In this document: one piece after another, positions 35,955 to 45,937 of the stretch
How positions within the stretch are numbered: the stretch's first letter is position 1
How the letters are laid out: each line of letters begins with the position of its first letter
DNA from: Phycisphaeraceae bacterium
GTDB lineage: Bacteria > Planctomycetota > Phycisphaerae > Phycisphaerales > UBA1924
Reading direction: 5' to 3'
DNA length: 64,000 nt
Assembly (NCBI GenBank): GCA_019636625.1
Contig: JAHBXE010000016.1
Coordinates: 1-64,000, forward strand
Translations under genes and position numbers: made by a program
Notes under the pieces: model-generated
What the model was told of the DNA's origin: nothing
Seen by the model: only the letters and a program-made list of their open reading frames with translations
Database searches by the model: none

Positions 35955-36680
35955 ATGCGACCCCTCACAATCCTCCTCCTCTCTTCCCTCTCCACACCCG
36001 CCCTCGCCGACATCGCCTACGACAACTTCGGCCCCAACAACGCCTTCACCGGCAACGGCTTCCTCGTCCGCGGCCCCAACGCCGGCATCTGGTGGACCCA
36101 CGCCTTCCCCATCACCCCCTCCCGCTCCGGCACCATCACCACCATCACCGTCGCCGTCCAGCATCTCTCCGGCCTCAACAACTACACCTTCGAACTCCGC
36201 GCCGATGCCGGCGGCACCCCCGGCCCAACCCTCGCCGTCCTCGGCTCCGTGACCGGCTTCACCTCCGGCTCCACTCCCGTCCAGTTCTCCGCGAACCCCG
36301 GCATCTCCATCACTTCCGGCACGCCCTACTGGATCTACGCCCGCGGCCAAGGCGACGCCACCGGCACCTGGCTTGGCAGCCCAACCGGCGGCGGCTTCCG
36401 CGCCTTCAGTATCGACGGCGGCGCCTCGTTCATCCTCGAACCCCTCCCCGCTAACCTCGGCCAGGGCGCCATCCGCATCGAAGTCGCTGGCTCGTGCTAC
36501 CCCAACTGCGACAACAGCTCCTCAACCCCACTCCTCACCGCCAACGACTTCCTTTGCTTCCTCAACAAGTTCGCCAACAACGACCCCTACGCCAACTGCG
36601 ACGGCAGCACCGGCCAGCCCACCCTGACCGCCAACGACTTCCTTTGCTTCATCAACGCCTACGCCTCCGGCTGCCCATAA
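35955..36680 (+). CDS. Secreted choice-of-anchor-type protein with two dockerin repeats
   Basis: 241-residue exported protein. A signal peptide (MRPLTILLLSSLSTPALA|D) is followed by a jelly-roll-like body of the choice-of-anchor R kind (AYDNFGPNN..., PYWIYARGQGD), then two GC-type dockerin repeats (CYPNCDNSSSTPLLTANDFL and YANCDGSTGQPTLTANDFLC). A GGGAG site lies 11 nt upstream of the ATG. It is probably co-transcribed with the preceding dockerin gene. Body function is unknown. Confidence 0.82.
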   Translation: MRPLTILLLSSLSTPALADIAYDNFGPNNAFTGNGFLVRGPNAGIWWTHAFPITPSRSGTITTITVAVQHLSGLNNYTFELRADAGGTPGPTLAVLGSVTGFTSGSTPVQFSANPGISITSGTPYWIYARGQGDATGTWLGSPTGGGFRAFSIDGGASFILEPLPANLGQGAIRIEVAGSCYPNCDNSSSTPLLTANDFLCFLNKFANNDPYANCDGSTGQPTLTANDFLCFINAYASGCP

Positions 36681-36781
36681 CGCCCCTCGCCGTTCCCCGC
36701 CCGCCTGCCTCCCCTCCTTATACTCCTCCCCCCAAGCACCTATCCCGCGGCCACACCGCCGCGGCGTGAAGGAACCTCCAC

Positions 36782-38347
36782 GTGCCCACCCGTCACTTCG
36801 ATCTCGTCGTCATCGGCGGCGGCCCCGCCGGCTACGTCGGCGCCATCCGCGCCGCCCAACTCGGCATGAACGTCGCCTGCGTCGAACGCGCCAAGCTCGG
36901 CGGCGTCTGCCTCAACTGGGGATGCATCCCCTCCAAGGCCCTCCTCTCCAACGCCGAACTGATGGAAAAACTCCACAAGGCCGACTTCTGGGGCCTCAAG
37001 CTCTCGGGCACCGTCGGCATCGATTGGGACAAGGTCATCGGCCGCTCCCGCGACGTCGCCGGCAAGCTCAACAAGGGCATCGAGTTCCTCTTCAAAAAGA
37101 ACAAGGTCACCCACATCATCGGCAACGCCAAGATCACCTCCGGCCGCAAGGGCCCGACCGGCAAGTGCCAGGTCGAAGTCCAGGAGTGCAAGGTCCAGGA
37201 GGAACTGACCTCCGCCCCCGCCACGCCGGGCAAGGCCATCGAGACCCTCACCTGCGACAACATCCTCATCGCCACCGGCTCCGTCGCCCGCGACCTCCCC
37301 TTCGCCAGGTTCGACGGCGACAGGATCTGGGGCGCCCGCGAAGCGATGTTCAACAAACAGCAGCCCAAGAGCCTCATCGTCGTCGGCGCCGGCGCCATCG
37401 GCATGGAGTTCGCCTACTTCTACCACTCCATGGGCACCAAGGTCACCGTCGTCGAAATGCTCGACCGCATCCTCCCCGTCGAGGACAAGGACATCTCCGA
37501 CGCCCTCCTCAAGCACTACAAGAAAGCCGGAATGGACATCCGAGTCTCCACCACCACCACCGCCGTCGAAAAAACCGCCACCGGCGTCAAGGTCACCATC
37601 GCCCCCGCTCCCGCCCCGGCCGGCTCCGCCCCTCAGTCCTCAGCACCCAGCACTCAGCACTCTGTCCTGGAAGCCGATCGCGTCCTCCTCGCCATCGGCG
37701 TCAAGGGCCGCACCGACGGCCTCTGCGACCCCTCCCTCGGCCTCAAGATCGAGAAGGACCACATCGTCACCGACTTCATCCCCGGCAAGACCCGCGCCGA
37801 AGCCATCGACTACAAGACCAACATCGACGGCCTCTACGCCGTCGGCGACGTCATCGGCCCGCCATGGCTCGCCCACGTCGCCATGGAAGAGGCCATCACC
37901 TGCATCGAACGCATCGCCTGGAAGAAAGACCCCAAGAAGCACCACGAGCCCTACCCCATCGACTACTCCACCATCCCCGGCTGCACCTACTGCCTCCCAC
38001 AGGTCGCCTCCGTCGGCTTCACCGAGCAGCAGCTCATCGCCCAGGGCCTCAAGAAGGACAAGGACTACGCCGTCGGCAAAATGCCCTTCCAGTCCCACGG
38101 CAAGGCCATCGCCGCCGCCCACACCGAGGGCATGATCAAGCTCCTCCGCGGCCTGCCCCGCGGCGAAATCCTCGGCTGCCACATCCTCGGCGACCAGGCC
38201 ACCGAACTCATCGCCGAAATGACCCTCGCCCGCCGCCTCGAAGCCACCACCGAAGAAATCATCGCCACCATCCACGCCCACCCCACCATGCACGAAGCGA
38301 TGCACGAGGCCGCCCTCGCCTCGGAAGGCCGCCCCATCCACATGTAA
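36782..38347 (+). CDS. lpdA: Dihydrolipoyl dehydrogenase
   Basis: E3 flavoenzyme of 2-oxoacid dehydrogenase and glycine-cleavage complexes. The 521-residue product shows FAD site VIGGGPAGYVGAIRAAQLG, redox disulfide GGVCLNWGCIPSKAL, NAD site VVGAGAIGMEFAYFYHSMGTKVTVVE, FAD motif GLYAVGDV, and the catalytic His-Glu near the end (HAHPTMHEA). Two insertions make it longer than usual: a segment near residue 130 before ILIATGS, and an Ala/Pro/Ser loop near 278-296 encoded by a CAGCACT repeat. GTG start with AAGGAA upstream. Confidence 0.94.
   Translation: MPTRHFDLVVIGGGPAGYVGAIRAAQLGMNVACVERAKLGGVCLNWGCIPSKALLSNAELMEKLHKADFWGLKLSGTVGIDWDKVIGRSRDVAGKLNKGIEFLFKKNKVTHIIGNAKITSGRKGPTGKCQVEVQECKVQEELTSAPATPGKAIETLTCDNILIATGSVARDLPFARFDGDRIWGAREAMFNKQQPKSLIVVGAGAIGMEFAYFYHSMGTKVTVVEMLDRILPVEDKDISDALLKHYKKAGMDIRVSTTTTAVEKTATGVKVTIAPAPAPAGSAPQSSAPSTQHSVLEADRVLLAIGVKGRTDGLCDPSLGLKIEKDHIVTDFIPGKTRAEAIDYKTNIDGLYAVGDVIGPPWLAHVAMEEAITCIERIAWKKDPKKHHEPYPIDYSTIPGCTYCLPQVASVGFTEQQLIAQGLKKDKDYAVGKMPFQSHGKAIAAAHTEGMIKLLRGLPRGEILGCHILGDQATELIAEMTLARRLEATTEEIIATIHAHPTMHEAMHEAALASEGRPIHM
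37631..37665 (+). repeat. Short CAGCACT repeat inside lpdA
   Basis: Imperfect tandem copies of CAGCACT/CAGCACC, in frame, encoding an Ala/Pro/Ser/Gln-rich loop between the NAD-domain strands of LpdA. The composition differs from the flanking coding sequence and looks like insertion of an intergenic-type repeat. Insertion is inference. Confidence 0.45.
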
Positions 38348-38371: not shown

Positions 38372-38455
38372 GTGGCACGGGCCACAGGCTCTGAGTGGCC
38401 CGTGCATCCCTTGGTTCCCTCGTGGCACGGGCCACAGGCTTTGAGTGGCCCGTGC
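38372..38455. repeat. Hairpin repeat A, two tandem copies (A1, A2)
   Basis: Two 50-bp-spaced copies of a palindromic element: arms GCACGGGCCAC and GTGGCCCGTGC (11 bp, perfect) around a 9-nt loop, at 38375-38405 and 38425-38455. The loops differ by one base (AGGCTCTGA / AGGCTTTGA). It resembles REP elements, lies 25 nt after lpdA and could act as a terminator. A second pair lies at 41298-41380. Confidence 0.75.
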
Positions 38456-38476
38456 ACCCCCATAGTTAGACATCTC

Positions 38477-38533
38477 AACTGACACCACGCTGTCACTCTC
38501 AACCCAAACCAGTGACAACGTGTTGTCACTCCA
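38477..38533. repeat. Hairpin repeat B, copy 1
   Basis: 57-bp element beginning AACTGACACCACGCTGTCAC and containing a second palindrome with arms AGTGACAAC / GTTGTCACT (38511-38530). A near-identical copy lies at 42602-42658. It follows A2 after only 21 nt here. Confidence 0.7.
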
Positions 38534-38551
38534 CATCCATCCGCCCCGTGC

Positions 38552-38589
38552 CATCGAAGTCACACCTGCCTTGAGGTGTGACTTCGATG
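38552..38589. repeat. Hairpin repeat C, copy 1
   Basis: Perfect 16-bp stem, CATCGAAGTCACACCT (38552-38567) and AGGTGTGACTTCGATG (38574-38589), around loop GCCTTG. Copy 2 lies 52 nt downstream and shows compensatory changes. Confidence 0.75.
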
Positions 38590-38640
38590 CTCTTCCACAA
38601 CCACACCTCTTACCAGTCCCCGGCTCCATCCACCCCGTGC

Positions 38641-38678
38641 CATCCAAGTCCCGCCTGCCTTGAGGTGGTACTTGGATG
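38641..38678. repeat. Hairpin repeat C, copy 2
   Basis: Same architecture and GCCTTG loop as copy 1. The stem is CATCCAAGTCCCGCCT with AGGTGGTACTTGGATG: one G-U pair and one C-U mismatch. The fifth base pair is C-G here and G-C in copy 1, a compensatory double change that supports selection on the hairpin. The rest of the gap to 38915 holds no gene. Confidence 0.7.
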
Positions 38679-38915
38679 CCCTCCCCACAACCCCACGGCC
38701 CCTCCTCCCGCCCAACCGGCCAAACCCCGATCCCACCGATCCGTGGATCGCCCAGGCCCCACGAGCCGGCCCCACCGCACACGCCGGCACAGACTCGGCT
38801 GCAACCGCGCCGACTTTCCGTGGTATATTCAAGAGCCAGGTCCGATCACGGGGAGCGGGAAAGGTGCCGACGGGGGGACACGGACCGCCCAATGAGGATC
38901 CCAAGGAGTGCACAC

Positions 38916-41234
38916 ATGGCCCTCGCCCTGCCGTCGTGTTCCACGAAACAGTGGCCCTCTCCGCGAGCTTCTTCCAGCCCAAAGCACCGTGCCGCCGCCT
39001 CGGCCCTGCTCGCCGCCGCGTGCGGCTGCGCCTGCGCTCAGGAGAGCCCGGTCTACGTCATCAACCGCCTCGGCCTTGTCGGCCCCGAGTACCAGGCCGG
39101 CACCGGCAGAACTCGATCCCTCCCATCGACCACCTCCGCCAATGGCCTTGTTGCCGGCACATCCAACCGCTTGTCCGACACCGAACAGTTTTATGGCAAC
39201 GATGCGTGGCTCTTCAATGGATCGACGACCATCGGCCCCATCAACCTCACGGGCGGTGATTACGAGAACCCATTGACCACCCCGATCTACCGCGCCGGGT
39301 GGCCCATCGCGGTCGATGAGGCAGGCCGCGTCGCCGGCGCATCGCTGCGCTTCGGCTGGGCAGGAGAGAACATCGGCCACGACGCCTGGCTCTTCGACGG
39401 CGCCGACACCCGACGCATCAATCCCATCGACGGCGACTACCAGTGGCCGGGCGTCAACGGCGTCGAACGGCGCGGCGGCGTGCGCTGGTTCCGCAACGGC
39501 CTTGCTGTCGGGACCGCCGATCGCAAGTCGCAAAGCGGCGCCCTGCTGGGCAGTGATGCCTTCCTCTTCAACGGCTCGCAGACCATCGTCCCCCTCAACC
39601 TTCGCGGCCCCGAGTACGAACAGGATTCCCCAAACGGCGTGTACCGCTCGCTCGTCAACGCCGCATTCGGAGACCTGCTGCTCTCCCGATCCGGGATCGT
39701 CGCGGGTGTCTCCCTGCGCACGCTGCCGAATCCGAGCCAGGACGCCGGTTCAGACGCCTGGGTCTTCAACGGGACCACCACCATCGGTCCGATCAATCTC
39801 ACCGGCCAGGGCTACCAGACCCGCGCCCCGGAGGGGCACATCTTTCGTCGCGGCGAACGGCTCCTCATGAACGACTCGGGAGTCGTCGCCGGGCTCTCGT
39901 GGCGCTTTCACCCGAACTGGGCGCCACTCGGCTCCGACGCCTGGGTGCACCGCAACGGCGTGACGACCGGTCCGATCAATCTCGTCGGACCCCCCTACGA
40001 GCGGGACAGCAACGGCCTCCCTTTCCGAGTCGGCGAAGCCCGCCGCATCGACAACGCCGGCGCCGTCACGGGCTCTTCGAGTCGATTCTCGCCGTCCGGC
40101 GCCGATCTTGGCTCCGATGTCTGGATGCATCACGACGGCGTCACCGCCGGCCCCTTGAATCTCGTCGGCTCACCCTACGAGTTTCAGTCCATCGATGGAC
40201 TGGTGCGCCGCGGCCAGGCCTACGCCCTCCAGCCGCCCACCCACCCCCCATGCGGTTATTCCACCCGATTCGCGCCCGACGGTACGACCGCGGGACGAGA
40301 CTGCTGGGTCTTCCGCGCCGGCTCGACGGTGGGCCCCGTCAACCTCACGGGGGGGCCGTACGAGTGGTCGAGCGCCGGCACCCCGTTCCGGCATTCCGAG
40401 TGGCACGGCGGCGGACGCGGCACATCGACGCGGTACTCCGCCTCCGGCGCCACCATGGGACAGGACTGCTGGTTCTTTGATGGCGAAGTCACCCACGGAC
40501 CCATCAACCTCACCGGTGGCGTGTACGAGTTTGACCATGGAACCGCGGTACAGAGAAGCGGCCAGTTCATCCTGAACGCGACGGGCATCATCGCCACGGA
40601 GAACTTCATCGTCGGGCATTCGGTCCGCTATTCTCGAACCGGCGCGCACAACGGATACGCCGCCTGGGTCTACTCCATCGCGACCGGCACCACCACCGAG
40701 CTTCTCCCCTCGTTCAATCCATCCACCCTGTACGCCACCGTGCAGATCACGTCCGTCACCGAAACGGGCGTCGTCCTCGGCACCTATTACCAAAACGGAA
40801 GCTCCTCCGCTCCCCGGGCTTTCATCTGGACCCCGCACGCGGGAGTCCACGACCTCGGCGCCACCGTGAGCGGCGGCCTCACCCAGGCCGGGTGGCAGCA
40901 ACTCTCCGCCGTCGCCGACCAGTACCTTCCCGGCGCCATCGGCACCGCGCTCGGCGGCTCAGCGCAGTTTGTCATCGGCACCGGCCAGCCCCTCGGCGAA
41001 CCCTCCTCCTCTTCCGGCGTCTACCGCCTCACCGCGCTTCCGCCCGCGTGCTACCCCAACTGCGACGCCTCGACCGCCACACCCATCCTCTCCGCCAACG
41101 ACTTTCAGTGCTTCCTGTCCCGCTTCGCGGCACAAGACCCCTACGCCAACTGCGACGGCTCCACAGGCTCCCTCATCCTCACCGCCAACGACTTCCTCTG
41201 CTTCCTCACCGCCTTCGCCCGCGGCTGCCCCTGA
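38916..41234 (+). CDS. Large secreted eight-repeat protein with two dockerin repeats
   Basis: 772-residue exported protein. The N-terminal signal region is long and basic, ending near residue 41 (ACGCACAQ). Eight repeats of about 60 residues follow (about 95-600), each built around [SHN]DxWxFxGxxTxGPINLxGxxYE, then a HAF-like segment (FIWTPHAGVHDLGA, about 630-645). The C-terminus has two GC-type dockerin repeats (CYPNCDASTATPILSANDFQ and YANCDGSTGSLILTANDFLC). The ATG at 38916 is set by AAGGAG 7 nt upstream. Probably a surface-anchored beta-propeller or solenoid; ligand unknown. Confidence 0.82.
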   Translation: MALALPSCSTKQWPSPRASSSPKHRAAASALLAAACGCACAQESPVYVINRLGLVGPEYQAGTGRTRSLPSTTSANGLVAGTSNRLSDTEQFYGNDAWLFNGSTTIGPINLTGGDYENPLTTPIYRAGWPIAVDEAGRVAGASLRFGWAGENIGHDAWLFDGADTRRINPIDGDYQWPGVNGVERRGGVRWFRNGLAVGTADRKSQSGALLGSDAFLFNGSQTIVPLNLRGPEYEQDSPNGVYRSLVNAAFGDLLLSRSGIVAGVSLRTLPNPSQDAGSDAWVFNGTTTIGPINLTGQGYQTRAPEGHIFRRGERLLMNDSGVVAGLSWRFHPNWAPLGSDAWVHRNGVTTGPINLVGPPYERDSNGLPFRVGEARRIDNAGAVTGSSSRFSPSGADLGSDVWMHHDGVTAGPLNLVGSPYEFQSIDGLVRRGQAYALQPPTHPPCGYSTRFAPDGTTAGRDCWVFRAGSTVGPVNLTGGPYEWSSAGTPFRHSEWHGGGRGTSTRYSASGATMGQDCWFFDGEVTHGPINLTGGVYEFDHGTAVQRSGQFILNATGIIATENFIVGHSVRYSRTGAHNGYAAWVYSIATGTTTELLPSFNPSTLYATVQITSVTETGVVLGTYYQNGSSSAPRAFIWTPHAGVHDLGATVSGGLTQAGWQQLSAVADQYLPGAIGTALGGSAQFVIGTGQPLGEPSSSSGVYRLTALPPACYPNCDASTATPILSANDFQCFLSRFAAQDPYANCDGSTGSLILTANDFLCFLTAFARGCP

Positions 41235-41297
41235 CACCCACCCCGACATCACCTCCACCCAGGCACCAAGCCCCGCGTGAGTCCACCCGCCCCCCTC

Positions 41298-41380
41298 GTG
41301 GCACGGGCCACAGGCTCTGAGTGGCCCGCACATCCCTTGGTCTCCTCGTGGCACGGGCCACAGGCTTTGAGTGGCCCGTG
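41298..41380. repeat. Hairpin repeat A, two more copies (A3, A4)
   Basis: Same 50-bp-spaced arrangement and loops as A1/A2 (stems at 41301-41311/41321-41328 and 41351-41361/41371-41380). Both right arms have decayed at their 3' ends. Here A4 is followed by the lower-GC SIR2 segment, not by repeat B. Confidence 0.72.
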
Positions 41381-41591
41381 GTCCTCGCCAGACAAGTAGC
41401 TGGGTGACGCTGCTAGCGCACACTGACATCGACTGACTGGCCGACGATGACATCCCGCATCGCAAGCGCAGCACACCTAGCGTCACTGCCACGGCTATGG
41501 GTGGAGTGGGGTCTCCGTCGCGTGGCGGCCCCGCCGATCTTGTGACTGACGACTGCATCCAACCACATTGAGGGTTCGGTATGATCCCCTC

Positions 41592-42542
41592 ATGAAGAAA
41601 ACGGTTCTTGTGCTTGGAGCGGGTGCAAGTTGCGAATACGGCTTGCCGACTGGCCGTCAGCTACGAGATTGGATCATTCATAACGCGCCGACCTCGGTTG
41701 AACCGATCATCTCCTCGGTAAGTCAAGTGGTGTTCGGTCGTGAGGATCATCAGGGTCGGGCATGGGTGCGGCAGTCCATCGAGGCCTTTACCAGCGCACT
41801 TCAAGCCGCGGCTACGGGTAGCATTGACGAGTTCCTGACCTATCATCCGAATCACCGCGACATTGCCAGACTTGCGATTACCAGGTGCCTTCTTTCACTT
41901 GAAGCAAAAGCCGTGGTAGAAGCAAACTACGAAGCCGGCTTCTTCCCGACTCTCGCCAACGGTTTTCCCCACCCCGCGACTGGCGTTTGGCCTGACGAGA
42001 TCAGCCTGATCACTTTTAACTACGACCGGGTGGCCAAGTATGTCGTGTCCAGCATCCTGGGTGCACGGCATGGACAGGCGCACGCTGAAGCAGTCTGCTG
42101 CGCCTTTGAACAAGCTGCCGTTCACGTGTACGGGTCCTTTGCGATGGGGTATGTGTTCGACGCGCAGAAACTTCGCTTTGTCCCTCAGAATCGATGGCAC
42201 GGTGGACCGAGCGACATTGCAGTAGCCGAGTACAACGAGTCGGCCAAGGGCATCTCCGTTATCGGCGACGATCGGTCTTCGGTCTCCCCTCAGATCGGCG
42301 AACGGATCAGAACGGCGGATCGCATCGTATTTCTCGGCTTTGGTTTTGACGACACCAACGTGCGTGTGCTTGGCCTAGAGGGTGGCGCAGCCTCGCTTAA
42401 GTCTGGTTGCCAAGTTCTTGCCACGGGGTACAGGCTCAGCCGCCGCAAAAGAGAACAGGTATCTGGGCTGTTTCCGGGTATTTATCTGGGCGGCGACTCA
42501 ACTAGTTGTGCTGCTTTCGTCGAGGAATCGGGTGCGATCTAG
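41592..42542 (+). CDS. Stand-alone SIR2-like domain protein, possible defence gene
   Basis: 316-residue soluble protein of the SIR2-like NAD-binding/NADase fold: VLVLGAGASCEYGLPTG (residues 5-21), SIDEFL (77-82), ITFNYDR (140-146), HVYGS (178-182, with the putative catalytic His) and RIVFLGFGFDDTNVRVLGL near 240-258. Related domains deplete NAD+ in antiphage systems such as Thoeris, DSR and SIR2-pAgo, but usually with partner domains; none is adjacent here. Base composition is visibly lower in GC (near 55-58%) than the neighbours, suggesting acquisition. The ATG at 41592 has no obvious ribosome site. A defence role is inference. Confidence 0.82.
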   Translation: MKKTVLVLGAGASCEYGLPTGRQLRDWIIHNAPTSVEPIISSVSQVVFGREDHQGRAWVRQSIEAFTSALQAAATGSIDEFLTYHPNHRDIARLAITRCLLSLEAKAVVEANYEAGFFPTLANGFPHPATGVWPDEISLITFNYDRVAKYVVSSILGARHGQAHAEAVCCAFEQAAVHVYGSFAMGYVFDAQKLRFVPQNRWHGGPSDIAVAEYNESAKGISVIGDDRSSVSPQIGERIRTADRIVFLGFGFDDTNVRVLGLEGGAASLKSGCQVLATGYRLSRRKREQVSGLFPGIYLGGDSTSCAAFVEESGAI

Positions 42543-42601
42543 CGGCTGGTCCTGTGAGGACTTGCCACCAATCCTGGCCCACGGGCCCGTTTGATCCGTC
42601 A

Positions 42602-42658
42602 AACTGACACCACGCTGTCACTCCCACCCCTAACGAGTGACAACGTGTTGTCACTCCA
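42602..42658. repeat. Hairpin repeat B, copy 2
   Basis: Matches B1 over its length; the second palindrome here has 10-bp arms GAGTGACAAC (42635-42644) and GTTGTCACTC (42647-42656). It is followed by TCCATCCGCCCC-like sequence as is B1. It lies 60 nt after the SIR2-like gene, 1.2 kb from A4. Confidence 0.7.
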
Positions 42659-42707
42659 ATTCCATCCGCCCCCTTGTCCCCGCCCGCCCCCACGGTACCT
42701 TCCCCTC

Positions 42708-43401
42708 ATGCTCTCCACCACCCACGACCTCCTCTCTCAACCCATCGACCCCCAGATTGACGGCCTCACCATCAACCCAAACCAGCTCCTCGACGACCTC
42801 CTCCAGTCCGACCGCCACCTTATCGACATCGCCGCCTCCCACAAACTCACGCTCCGCCAACTCCTCGTCTGGTGCGCCCAGCCTCCCTTCCGCGCCCTCC
42901 TCGCCGCGGCGGATGAACTCGCCCTCCGCCGCGCCGCCCACACCGCCGCCCAATCCAAACACCTCGCCCTCACCGTCCTCTCCGAGCACTGCCGCACCCT
43001 CTGCGAATCCACCGCCGACCGCACCCTCGCCAGCCGCGCCGCCCGCGCCCTCCTCCGCGCCGTCGGAACCCCGGGAAACGCCGAGCCTCCCCGCGCCCCC
43101 GCGGCACCACGCCATCGCCACGGCCCCGGCGGAAGAGACGACCCCGGACCCAACGGTGCCCGCCTCAACGGCCGCGGCGGCAGACGCCTTCCCCCGGACT
43201 TCTTCAGCCCCGCCCCACCCACCTCCAACGGCCACCACACGCAACACAGCACAACCAACCCGCCGCACGCAAACGGCCGCGCCGATTCGGCCGATGCGCC
43301 CGCGCCACCGAGCCCGCCGCGAAGCGCAAAATTCACCCGCGTCCCGTCCGCGAAACCCCTCGACAGCCAAACTCCCACCGCACAAAAATCCACGAGAATA
43401 A
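42708..43401 (+). pseudogene. Hypothetical protein gene, probably frameshifted
   Basis: The ATG at 42708 opens a convincing N-terminal region (DLLSQPIDPQIDGLTINPNQ; LLVWCAQPPFRALLAAADEL), a helical, Leu/Ala-rich domain of about 120 residues unlike any family I can name. After about 43070 this frame turns into Arg/Gly-rich sequence and runs without stop 500 nt into the collagen-like gene. The next frame gives an Ala/Pro/Thr/Arg tail ending at 43401. A one-base shift in the C-runs near 43066-43120 would join them. Either a real frameshift, a sequence error or a normal end I cannot see. Confidence 0.45.
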
Positions 43402-43488
43402 GGGACCGCCGCGCAAGTCTTTCCAGCGATCTTCGCGTGACCTCTTCCCATTCGCTGAAAATCTGCTACGCTCGCGATCGGTCAGCGA

Positions 43489-43511
43489 AGCCCCGAGACC
43501 CCTTCGGGGCT
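43489..43511 (+). other. Hairpin in the collagen-like gene leader
   Basis: Perfect 8-bp stem AGCCCCGA (43489-43496) and TCGGGGCT (43504-43511) with a 7-nt loop, 49 nt before the start codon. It may be a leader hairpin or the terminator of upstream transcription; no U-tract follows, so a terminator is less likely. Confidence 0.35.
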
Positions 43512-43560
43512 GCATCGCCGAATCACGGCGCCCTCTTCACCAGTTCCCGGGAGACCCGAA

Positions 43561-45390
43561 ATGAACCGTTCCACCCCCCGTCGTTTCACCCGCACGGCCC
43601 GGTCTGTCGTGGCCCTCATCGCCCTGGCCGCCGCGGGCGCCCCCGCCCTCGCCCAGACACCGATGGGCACCGCGTTCACCTACCAGGGACAGCTCAAGTC
43701 CTCCGGCCTGCCCGCCGGCGGCCAGTTCGACATGCGGTTCCGCATCCTCAGCGCCGCCACCGGCGGCACACAAGTGGGTCCAACCCTGTCCGCCCTCGAT
43801 GTCACCATCACCCAGGGCCAGTTCACCATCGACCTCGACTTCGGCCCCGGCGTGTTCGACGGCGACCAGCGCTGGCTGGAAATCTCCGTCCGCCGCTGCA
43901 ACTCCGGCCAGTCCTACAGCGTCCTCTCGCCGCGCCAACCCGTCCTCGTCGCCCCGTACGCGCTCTACGCGCTCAAGGCCAAGTACGCCGAGAACGCGCC
44001 CCCCGGCGCCATCGGACCCACCGGCCCGCAGGGACCGGCCGGCCCGACCGGCGCCCAGGGTGATGCGGGACCAACCGGGCAGCAGGGCGATCCGGGCGCC
44101 ACAGGACCGCAAGGCCCCGCGGGCCCAACGGGTCCGCAAGGTCCCACGGGCGCCCAGGGCGACACCGGCGCCACAGGCGATGCGGGCCCGCAGGGACCCA
44201 CCGGCCCGCAGGGCGCCCAAGGCGATCCGGGCCCGGCCGGACCACAGGGACCCGATGGTCCCGCCGGTGCTCAAGGTCCGACAGGGGCACAAGGTCCCAC
44301 GGGAGCACAGGGTCCCACGGGGGCACAAGGCGACACCGGCCCACAAGGCCCGACGGGACCGCAAGGTATCGCCGGCCCGGCCGGCGCGCCAGGACCCACC
44401 GGCGCGCAGGGTGATACGGGCACGACCGGCCCGACCGGCCCCGCGGGTCCGACCGGCGCTTCGCCCTGGTCCCTGAGCGGCTCGAACACCTTCTACAACG
44501 CGGGCCTGGTCAGCGTCGGTACCGCCAGCCCCGTCGCACCCAACCTCTTCACCTCCTTCGCCTCCGGCGCCACCACCACCGCCGTGCGCGGCCACGCCAC
44601 CGCCCCCTTGGGCATCGGCCCCATCATGGGCGGCGACTTCTCCATCGACAACAACGTCGGGTACGCCGTGCGCGGCCGATCGACCTGGGGCGCGGGCCTC
44701 ACCGCCGGTGTCTTCGGCGAGAACTGGAGCACCACCGGCTACGGCGTGCAGGCCATCTCCAGCGGCAACAACGGCACCGGTCTCTACGCCGAGGCCACCG
44801 CCCTGGGCGCCACCAGCAACCGCTTCGCCCTCTACGCCATCGCCAACACCGTCGCCAACAGCTGGGCCGGCTACTTCAACGGCAACGTCAACGTCACCGG
44901 TTCGCTCGCCAAGGGCTCCGGCACCTTCAAGATCGACCACCCCCTCGACCCCGAGAACAAGTTCCTCTACCACTCGTTCGTGGAAAGCCCGGACATGATG
45001 AACGTCTACAACGGCGTCGTCACGCTCGACGCTTCCGGTCGGGCCACCGTCCGCCTCCCCTCGTACTTCGAGGCCCTCAACAAGGACTTCCGCTACCAGC
45101 TCACTTGCATCGGCGGCTTCGCGCCCGTCTACATCGAGACCAAGGTCCGCGACAACGCCTTCACCATCGCCGGCGGCCGCGAAGGGCTCGAGGTCTCCTG
45201 GCAGGTCACCGGCATCCGCAAGGACGCCTTCGCCAACGCCAACCGCGTCATCCCCGAAGTCGACAAGCCCGAGAGCCAGAAGGGCAAGTACCTCCACCCC
45301 GAAGCCCACGGCAAGCCCGCCGAACTCGGCATCGACCGCATCCCCGCGCCGCAGCCGAACCCCGCGCCCGCCGGTATCTCCCAACGCTGA
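43561..45390 (+). CDS. Secreted collagen-like triple-helix protein
   Basis: 609 residues: signal peptide (about 1-32, ending LAQTP), an N-terminal globular domain ([24 protein letters not shown]...), about 50 uninterrupted Gly-X-Y triplets from residue 149 to 300 (mostly [12 protein letters not shown]), a beta-rich domain and a C-terminal region with [20 protein letters not shown] near 450. The triplets should form a collagen triple helix stabilised by Pro/Thr/Gln without hydroxyproline. A GGGAG site precedes the ATG. The trimer is probably an extracellular fibre or adhesin. Confidence 0.9.
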
Positions 45391-45453: not shown

Positions 45454-45882
45454 ATGCACACCCGCATCCTGCTGTCCCTGGCCGCCGCCGCTCTCCTGCC
45501 CACGCACGTTCTCGCGCAGGAGGACTTCAGCGTCGTCTGGCACACCATCGACTGTGGCGGAGGGACTTCCGAGGGCGACGAGTTCTCCCTCGACGCCACC
45601 ATCGCGCAGCCCGACGCCGGCAACCTGACCGGCCCCGAGTCGCTGGAGACGTTCTCCATCGAGGGCGGCTACTGGCCCCTGCTGAACTCCGGGCTCTGCT
45701 ACGCCAACTGCGACGGCTCCACCGGATCGCCCCTGCTGACCTCGAACGACTTCCTGTGTTTCCTCAACCGCTTCGCCGCCAACGATCCCTGGGCCAACTG
45801 CGACGGCTCGACCGGCTCGCCCGTGCTGACCTCAAACGACTTCCAGTGTTTCCTCAACAGGTTCGCGACGGGCTGTCCCTGA
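45454..45882 (+). CDS. Small secreted protein with two GC-type dockerin repeats
   Basis: 142 residues. A signal peptide (about 1-21, ending HVLAQ), a 50-residue segment (FSVVWHTIDCGGGTSEGDEF) and two dockerin repeats (YANCDGSTGSPLLTSNDFLC, WANCDGSTGSPVLTSNDFQC). The middle domain, IDCGGGTS..GGYW, recurs in planctomycete surface proteins. AGGAG precedes the ATG by 7 nt. It follows the collagen-like gene by 63 nt in the same direction and may be co-expressed. Confidence 0.85.
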   Translation: MHTRILLSLAAAALLPTHVLAQEDFSVVWHTIDCGGGTSEGDEFSLDATIAQPDAGNLTGPESLETFSIEGGYWPLLNSGLCYANCDGSTGSPLLTSNDFLCFLNRFAANDPWANCDGSTGSPVLTSNDFQCFLNRFATGCP

Positions 45883-45937
45883 CGCCCCGCTCTCCAAGCC
45901 GGGCCACGCGCGGGACCGGTCATCGTTTGAGCGTCGG

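What the first reader, a model, noticed from the sequence alone, without database searches (positions are those of the whole stretch)
41384..42601. SIR2-like gene appears inserted into a hairpin-repeat composite
Seen: the left composite A1-A2-B1 (38372-38533) is contiguous with 21 nt between A2 and B1. At the right the same pieces occur as A3-A4 (41298-41380) and B2 (42602-42658), with 1.2 kb of lower-GC sequence containing one gene between them. Inference: the SIR2-like segment was inserted between A and B, making the repeat a possible target site, and direct repeats about 4 kb apart could allow loss of the island.
Basis: partly seen in the sequence, partly recalled or inferred. Interest (0 to 1): 0.75.

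Follow-up and report, generated by a model that had tools for sequence, protein, structure and literature searches.

The report
Foreign SIR2 gene between REP and promoter
A probably foreign, defence-like SIR2 gene sits between two unrelated DNA elements: a pair of REP hairpins, and a regulatory site that occurs upstream of recA and a family of small genes in this genome. This looks like ordinary gene acquisition in a gap between genes, not a repeat that acts as an insertion target.

Summary
The repeats and coordinates are real. The 1.2-kb SIR2 segment is the lowest-GC stretch of its length in the window (0.58 against a mean of 0.67), so horizontal acquisition is well supported. The "A-B composite" is not one repeat. 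A is a REP element: about 28 copies were counted, 12 flanking a REP-associated tyrosine transposase (RAYT) gene. B is a palindromic site in promoters: 11 perfect copies, most centred about 62 or 72 bp upstream of a predicted transcription start, ahead of recA, a WYL-domain regulator gene and six related small genes, one of which (gene X) lies just right of the insert. B was found in no other of 163 same-family genomes. A and B lie within 60 bp of each other at only 2 of 10 A loci. The left AA-B1 is a local copy without gene X or a clear promoter. All four A copies here share a private stem change and both repeat pairs are about 91.5% identical, so duplication followed by SIR2 insertion is plausible. 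It is not provable, because no relative examined keeps this locus. No target-site duplication or targeting was found. The SIR2 protein is an orphan, probably an NAD-consuming defence effector.

The parts
36782..38347 (+). dihydrolipoamide dehydrogenase-like gene (lpdA), left neighbour; AA starts 25 nt after its stop
   Evidence: Pfam Pyr_redox_2 E 2e-59 and Pyr_redox_dim E 3e-31; present in all 36 relatives searched, 67-81% identical within the family
38372..38455 (+). A1-A2: doublet of REP hairpins, 5'-GTGGCACGGGCCACAGGCTYTGAGTGGCCCGTGC
   Evidence: same family as the 12 hairpins flanking the RAYT gene on contig 5
38477..38530 (+). B1: tandem palindromes (38478-38497 and 38511-38530), copy of the operator without a recognisable promoter or gene X downstream
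   Evidence: best promoter score no better than shuffles, p 0.36
38552..38589 (+). C1 hairpin, 16-bp perfect stem
   Evidence: z -7.4
38641..38678 (+). C2 hairpin, related to C1 with partly compensated stem changes
   Evidence: z -4.8
38676..41234 (+). repeat protein with dockerin-like C-terminus (longest open frame given; true start uncertain, probably near 38917)
   Evidence: repeat family D2; no Pfam match
41298..41381 (+). A3-A4: second REP doublet, 64 nt after the dockerin-type gene's stop; left edge of the SIR2 segment
41384..42601 (.). low-GC (0.58) acquired segment
41592..42542 (+). orphan SIR2-like gene, 316 aa, invariant GAGxS, NYD (N143) and H178
42602..42655 (+). B2: tandem operator palindromes (42603-42622 and 42636-42655), second palindrome centred about -62 of gene X
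42674..42701 (+). predicted sigma-70-type promoter of gene X: TTGTCC-16-TACCTT, 6 nt before the ATG (leaderless)
   Evidence: sequence prediction
42708..43400 (+). gene X, member of a small protein family, HTH-like by eye (frame stays open to 44063; 3' end uncertain)
   Evidence: paralogues on contigs 2 and 18 with 62% and 59% identity and identical B spacing; no Pfam, PHROGs or NCBIfam match

Best explanation
A horizontally acquired orphan SIR2-like gene sits in the intergenic gap between a REP doublet (A3-A4, at the 3' end of the dockerin-type gene) and the operator-promoter (B2) of gene X. A is a REP family associated with a RAYT-type transposase. B is most likely the binding site of a transcription activator acting from the class-I position (about -62 or -72) on recA, a WYL-WCX regulator gene and a family of gene-X-like genes, probably a DNA-damage regulon. 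The left AA-B1 is a local duplicate of this REP-plus-operator stretch. Most simply, AA-B was duplicated and SIR2 later entered the right-hand copy, where it separated the REPs from the operator without disrupting either. The SIR2 protein most likely consumes NAD when triggered by infection, as related defence proteins do. Shown by sequence: identities, positions, copy numbers, composition and conserved catalytic residues. Inferred: REP mobility, activator action at B, order of events, NADase activity.
For: A as REP: 12 A hairpins flank a gene passing the NCBIfam REP_Tyr_transpos cut-off (96.3 against 80 bits; layout). A begins with GTGG, fitting the GT(A/G)G REP head (PMC3686654). One stem pair varies T-A, G-C and C-G among copies. 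B as operator: 11 perfect sites; similar distance to ATG in six gene-X-family genes and similar placement at recA and the WYL gene; predicted promoters place B at -61 to -63, or -72 at two loci; recA confirmed. Local duplication: only the four A copies here carry the G-C pair, and both pairs are about 91.5% identical. Foreign SIR2: GC and GC3; homologues at 22-32% identity scattered over many phyla, 12 viral contigs and two Rhizobium plasmids; found in 6 of 60 relatives; no recurrent neighbours. Catalytic N143 and H178 invariant in 36 homologues.
Against: No empty orthologous site was found in the held relatives. The 21-nt left spacer shows no significant similarity to the sequence before B2 or the contig-2 B, so the ancestral junction cannot be recognised. 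Finding A and B within 60 bp twice exceeds chance (0.003-0.03 pairs expected; the intergenic fraction was assumed), so some link beyond coincidence may exist. Several promoter matches are individually no better than shuffles. The fold matches to SIR2 proteins are only moderate (TM about 0.45).
Confidence: 0.65

Rival explanations
1. AA-SIR2-B was the duplicated unit and the left copy later lost SIR2 by deletion, so there was no insertion into a pre-existing AA-B.
For: Duplication age of AA and B is equal, which does not order the events.
Against: The left spacer (21 nt) keeps no recognisable piece of the SIR2 segment; needs a clean deletion.
Confidence: 0.12
2. AA and B were copied separately (REP doublet by RAYT transposition, operator by another event) and adjacency on the left is secondary. 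SIR2 then never entered an AA-B composite.
For: A and B are different kinds of element and lie apart at most loci; on contig 39 a REP array also lies about 45 bp before a B site with an unlike spacer.
Against: Private G-C stem variant limited to this locus and matching divergence of both pairs favour one local event.
Confidence: 0.25
3. One reading: the AA-B hairpin composite is a preferred target site for insertion of the SIR2 element.
For: Segment edges fall at A4 and B2; a 9-bp inverted match (GGCCCGTGG / CCACGGGCC) lies at the end of A4 and near the right edge.
Against: The inverted match could easily be chance in GC-rich DNA (not tested formally); no target-site duplication and no recombinase; on contig 39 A-B is not interrupted, and the other A and B loci are not joined; B2 belongs to gene X.
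Confidence: 0.07
4. A rival only for what B is: B is the LexA (SOS) box of this organism rather than a WYL-regulator or other activator site.
For: recA is among the genes with B; LexA is present on contig 41.
Against: No B-like site within the 3.3 kb around lexA (best 13 of 20), whereas LexA usually controls itself; B lies upstream of -35 at a class-I activator distance; B lies in the promoter of a WYL-WCX regulator.
Confidence: 0.25

Closest known systems
REP elements with RAYT/TnpA-REP transposases (GTAG/GTRG families)
   Same: GTGG head, imperfect palindrome, location after stop codons in the window and on contig 39, arrays flanking a REP_Tyr_transpos gene
   Different: few copies (about 28), 12 of them around the RAYT gene; the stem is about 11 bp, longer than the usual 6-9 bp, and the loop is highly conserved
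Class-I activator regulons; WYL-domain DNA-damage activators such as DriD (site ATACGAC-N7-GTCGTAT, PMC12340889) and PafBC
   Same: about 20-bp palindrome with GAC...GTC half-sites, recA among targets, WYL-WCX regulator gene with the site in its own promoter
   Different: DriD binds over -35 and PafBC near -24; here the site sits near -62 or -72; the regulator was not identified experimentally; motif private to this genome among 163 of its family
SIR2-domain NAD-consuming defence proteins (KomC, SIR2-HerA, DSR2, ThsA, SIR2-APAZ/SPARSA)
   Same: SIR2 fold matches, KomC by profile E 6e-5, GAGxS, N and H conserved
   Different: 316-aa single gene without HerA, Argonaute, KomB or long C-terminal partner; no recurrent neighbour

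Membership tests
REP/RAYT (A elements) | cognate RAYT gene flanked by the same repeats | tested here: met
   layout, NF047646 above cut-off, copies
REP/RAYT (A elements) | GT(A/G)G head followed by palindrome | tested here: met
   (GTGG in most copies, GTGC or GTGT in some array copies); definition in PMC3686654
REP/RAYT (A elements) | extragenic, multi-copy | tested here: met
   gene boundaries were checked only for the window, contig 39 and contig 5
REP/RAYT (B elements) | same repeat flanks a RAYT gene | tested here: not met
   none of 11 B sites flanks a RAYT gene directly; the nearest is 1.6 kb away on contig 12
Class-I activator operator (B elements) | palindrome at about -61 or one helical turn further upstream of a sigma-70 promoter | tested here: met
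   sequence prediction only
Class-I activator operator (B elements) | regulator binds and activates | not testable with these tools
   needs binding and expression experiments
LexA box (B elements) | site in lexA's own promoter | tested here: not met
SIR2 NADase defence effector | SIR2 profile or fold with catalytic Asn and His | tested here: met
SIR2 NADase defence effector | known partner (HerA, Argonaute, KomB, ThsB) next to it | tested here: not met
   no second gene within the segment; no recurrent neighbours of homologues
SIR2 NADase defence effector | NAD hydrolysis and phage protection | not testable with these tools
   needs biochemistry
Transposon or integron-type insertion (SIR2 segment) | target-site duplication, terminal repeats or recombinase | tested here: not met
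   only a 9-bp inverted match, within what GC-rich DNA gives by chance

The most novel reading that the evidence does not exclude
This lineage uses a private activator palindrome (GTGACAACGTGTTGTCAC) to switch on recA together with a multiplied family of small HTH-like proteins, as a DNA-damage response run by a WYL-domain protein beside LexA. Accessory defence genes gather next to these operator-driven genes (SIR2 on contig 8; DUF488 and restriction-like genes on contig 2), so the regulon genes mark an acquisition spot.
Probability: 0.2. Interest if true: 0.6.

Novelty: new member of a known kind. Interest (0 to 1): 0.38.

Why it matters
It separates two things that look like one repeat: REP hairpins associated with a transposase, and an operator of a probable DNA-damage regulon. 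It also shows an orphan SIR2 gene acquired between them. The operator, recA, the WYL regulator and the gene-X family give a testable entry into stress regulation in a poorly studied group, probably Phycisphaerae (a same-family genome carries that label).

Tried and rejected
Rfam gave no match at either threshold. Pfam and NCBIfam found nothing for SIR2 and gene X. DNA comparison with 60 relatives gave no orthologous site. The lpdA neighbourhood in 11 relatives is not syntenic. Upstream regions of WYL homologues and of gene-X homologues in relatives lack a perfect B; only one WYL homologue (L107) has a 14-of-20 match. The test of the left spacer as ancestral junction was not significant. PHROGs and the phage collection gave no SIR2 match. 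A helicase-nuclease (AddB-like) reading of the gene divergent from the WYL gene could not be confirmed.

Full report
Observation. AA pairs are 91.6% identical over 95 nt and B pairs 91.5% over 71 nt; the longest exact matches are 37 and 23 nt. The interval 41384-42601 has GC 0.58, the lowest 1.2-kb value in the 64-kb window (mean 0.67, sd 0.023). GC3 of its gene is 0.60 against 0.81-0.92 in neighbouring genes, and GC skew changes at the same edges.

What A is. Genome-wide, A hairpins occur at ten loci, about 28 copies in the loci read. On contig 5, twelve of them in 45-bp tandem arrays flank a gene with a Y1 transposase domain that passes NCBIfam's REP-associated tyrosine transposase cut-off. 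A starts with GTGG and forms a stem in which one pair varies T-A, G-C, C-G. A is therefore a REP family. In the window both doublets follow a stop codon, by 25 and 64 nt; REPs close to the 3' end of the upstream gene are typical (PMC3733652).

What B is. The palindrome AGTGACAACGTGTTGTCACT has 11 perfect core matches in the genome and none for the reversed control. In the stricter form it occurs in only this one of 163 same-family genomes. Downstream of B are gene X (42708), its paralogues on contigs 2 and 18 with exactly the same distance between palindrome and ATG, three further genes that resemble it weakly, recA (confirmed), a WYL-WCX regulator and others. Aligning them shows TTGNNN-16-TANNNT-like boxes and places the palindrome at -61 to -63 at most loci and at -72 at two, one helical turn apart, as for class-I activators (general knowledge). 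Not every promoter match beats shuffled sequence on its own; the evidence is the shared spacing. Most gene-X-type ATGs lie 6-8 nt after the -10 box, suggesting leaderless transcripts. LexA exists but has no B nearby. A WYL regulator is the better candidate; DriD of Caulobacter binds a comparable 20-bp pseudopalindrome (PMC12340889).

The composite. A and B lie within 60 bp of each other only at the left copy here and on contig 39. B2 belongs to gene X. B1 has no promoter better than shuffled sequence and no gene X after it, so it is the derived copy. The four A copies here share a private compensatory change, so they arose locally. With equal divergence of both pairs, one duplication of REP doublet plus operator is the simplest account, and SIR2 then lies inside the right copy. 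This order is inferred. No relative examined keeps the locus, the left spacer is uninformative, and no target-site duplication was seen. Recombination between AA copies would remove the dockerin-type gene, not SIR2; only B1 x B2 would remove SIR2.

The SIR2 gene. It matches PADLOC SIR2 profiles. Homologues at 22-32% identity are scattered over Proteobacteria, Planctomycetota, Bacteroidota and other phyla, with 12 in viral contigs and two on Rhizobium plasmids. It occurs in 6 of 60 relatives. N143 and H178 are invariant in 36 sequences. A model of fair confidence (pLDDT 82) matches SIR2-HerA, KomC, DSR2 and ThsA. No neighbour recurs. An orphan NAD-consuming defence effector is the most likely function; this is inferred.

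Verdict. Observation confirmed. Insertion into an intergenic gap is likely. A hairpin-repeat target site is unlikely.

Noticed in passing
36493-36685, 41047-41239, 45695-45887: Three genes in the window end in the same dockerin-like C-terminus (74-77% identical DNA).
   Followed up: partly
38536-38685: Two further strong hairpins (C1, C2) with partly compensated stems follow B1; their units are 85% alike over 61 nt. Copies elsewhere were not searched.
   Followed up: partly
L051 (contig 2, 103000-108000): A second B plus gene X locus has DUF488 and a weak TaqI_C-like (methyltransferase-type) match upstream, so accessory genes lie next to gene X there too.
   Followed up: partly
L071 and L083: The B palindrome lies upstream of recA, and between a WYL-WCX regulator and an unassigned divergent gene.
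   Followed up: yes
42708-44063: The gene X frame stays open into the collagen-like gene at 43561 in another frame; its true 3' end is unclear, as in the contig-2 paralogue.
   Followed up: no
L050 3133-3408 (contig 39): A five-copy REP array stands about 45 bp before a B site followed by a short, possibly decayed gene.
   Followed up: partly
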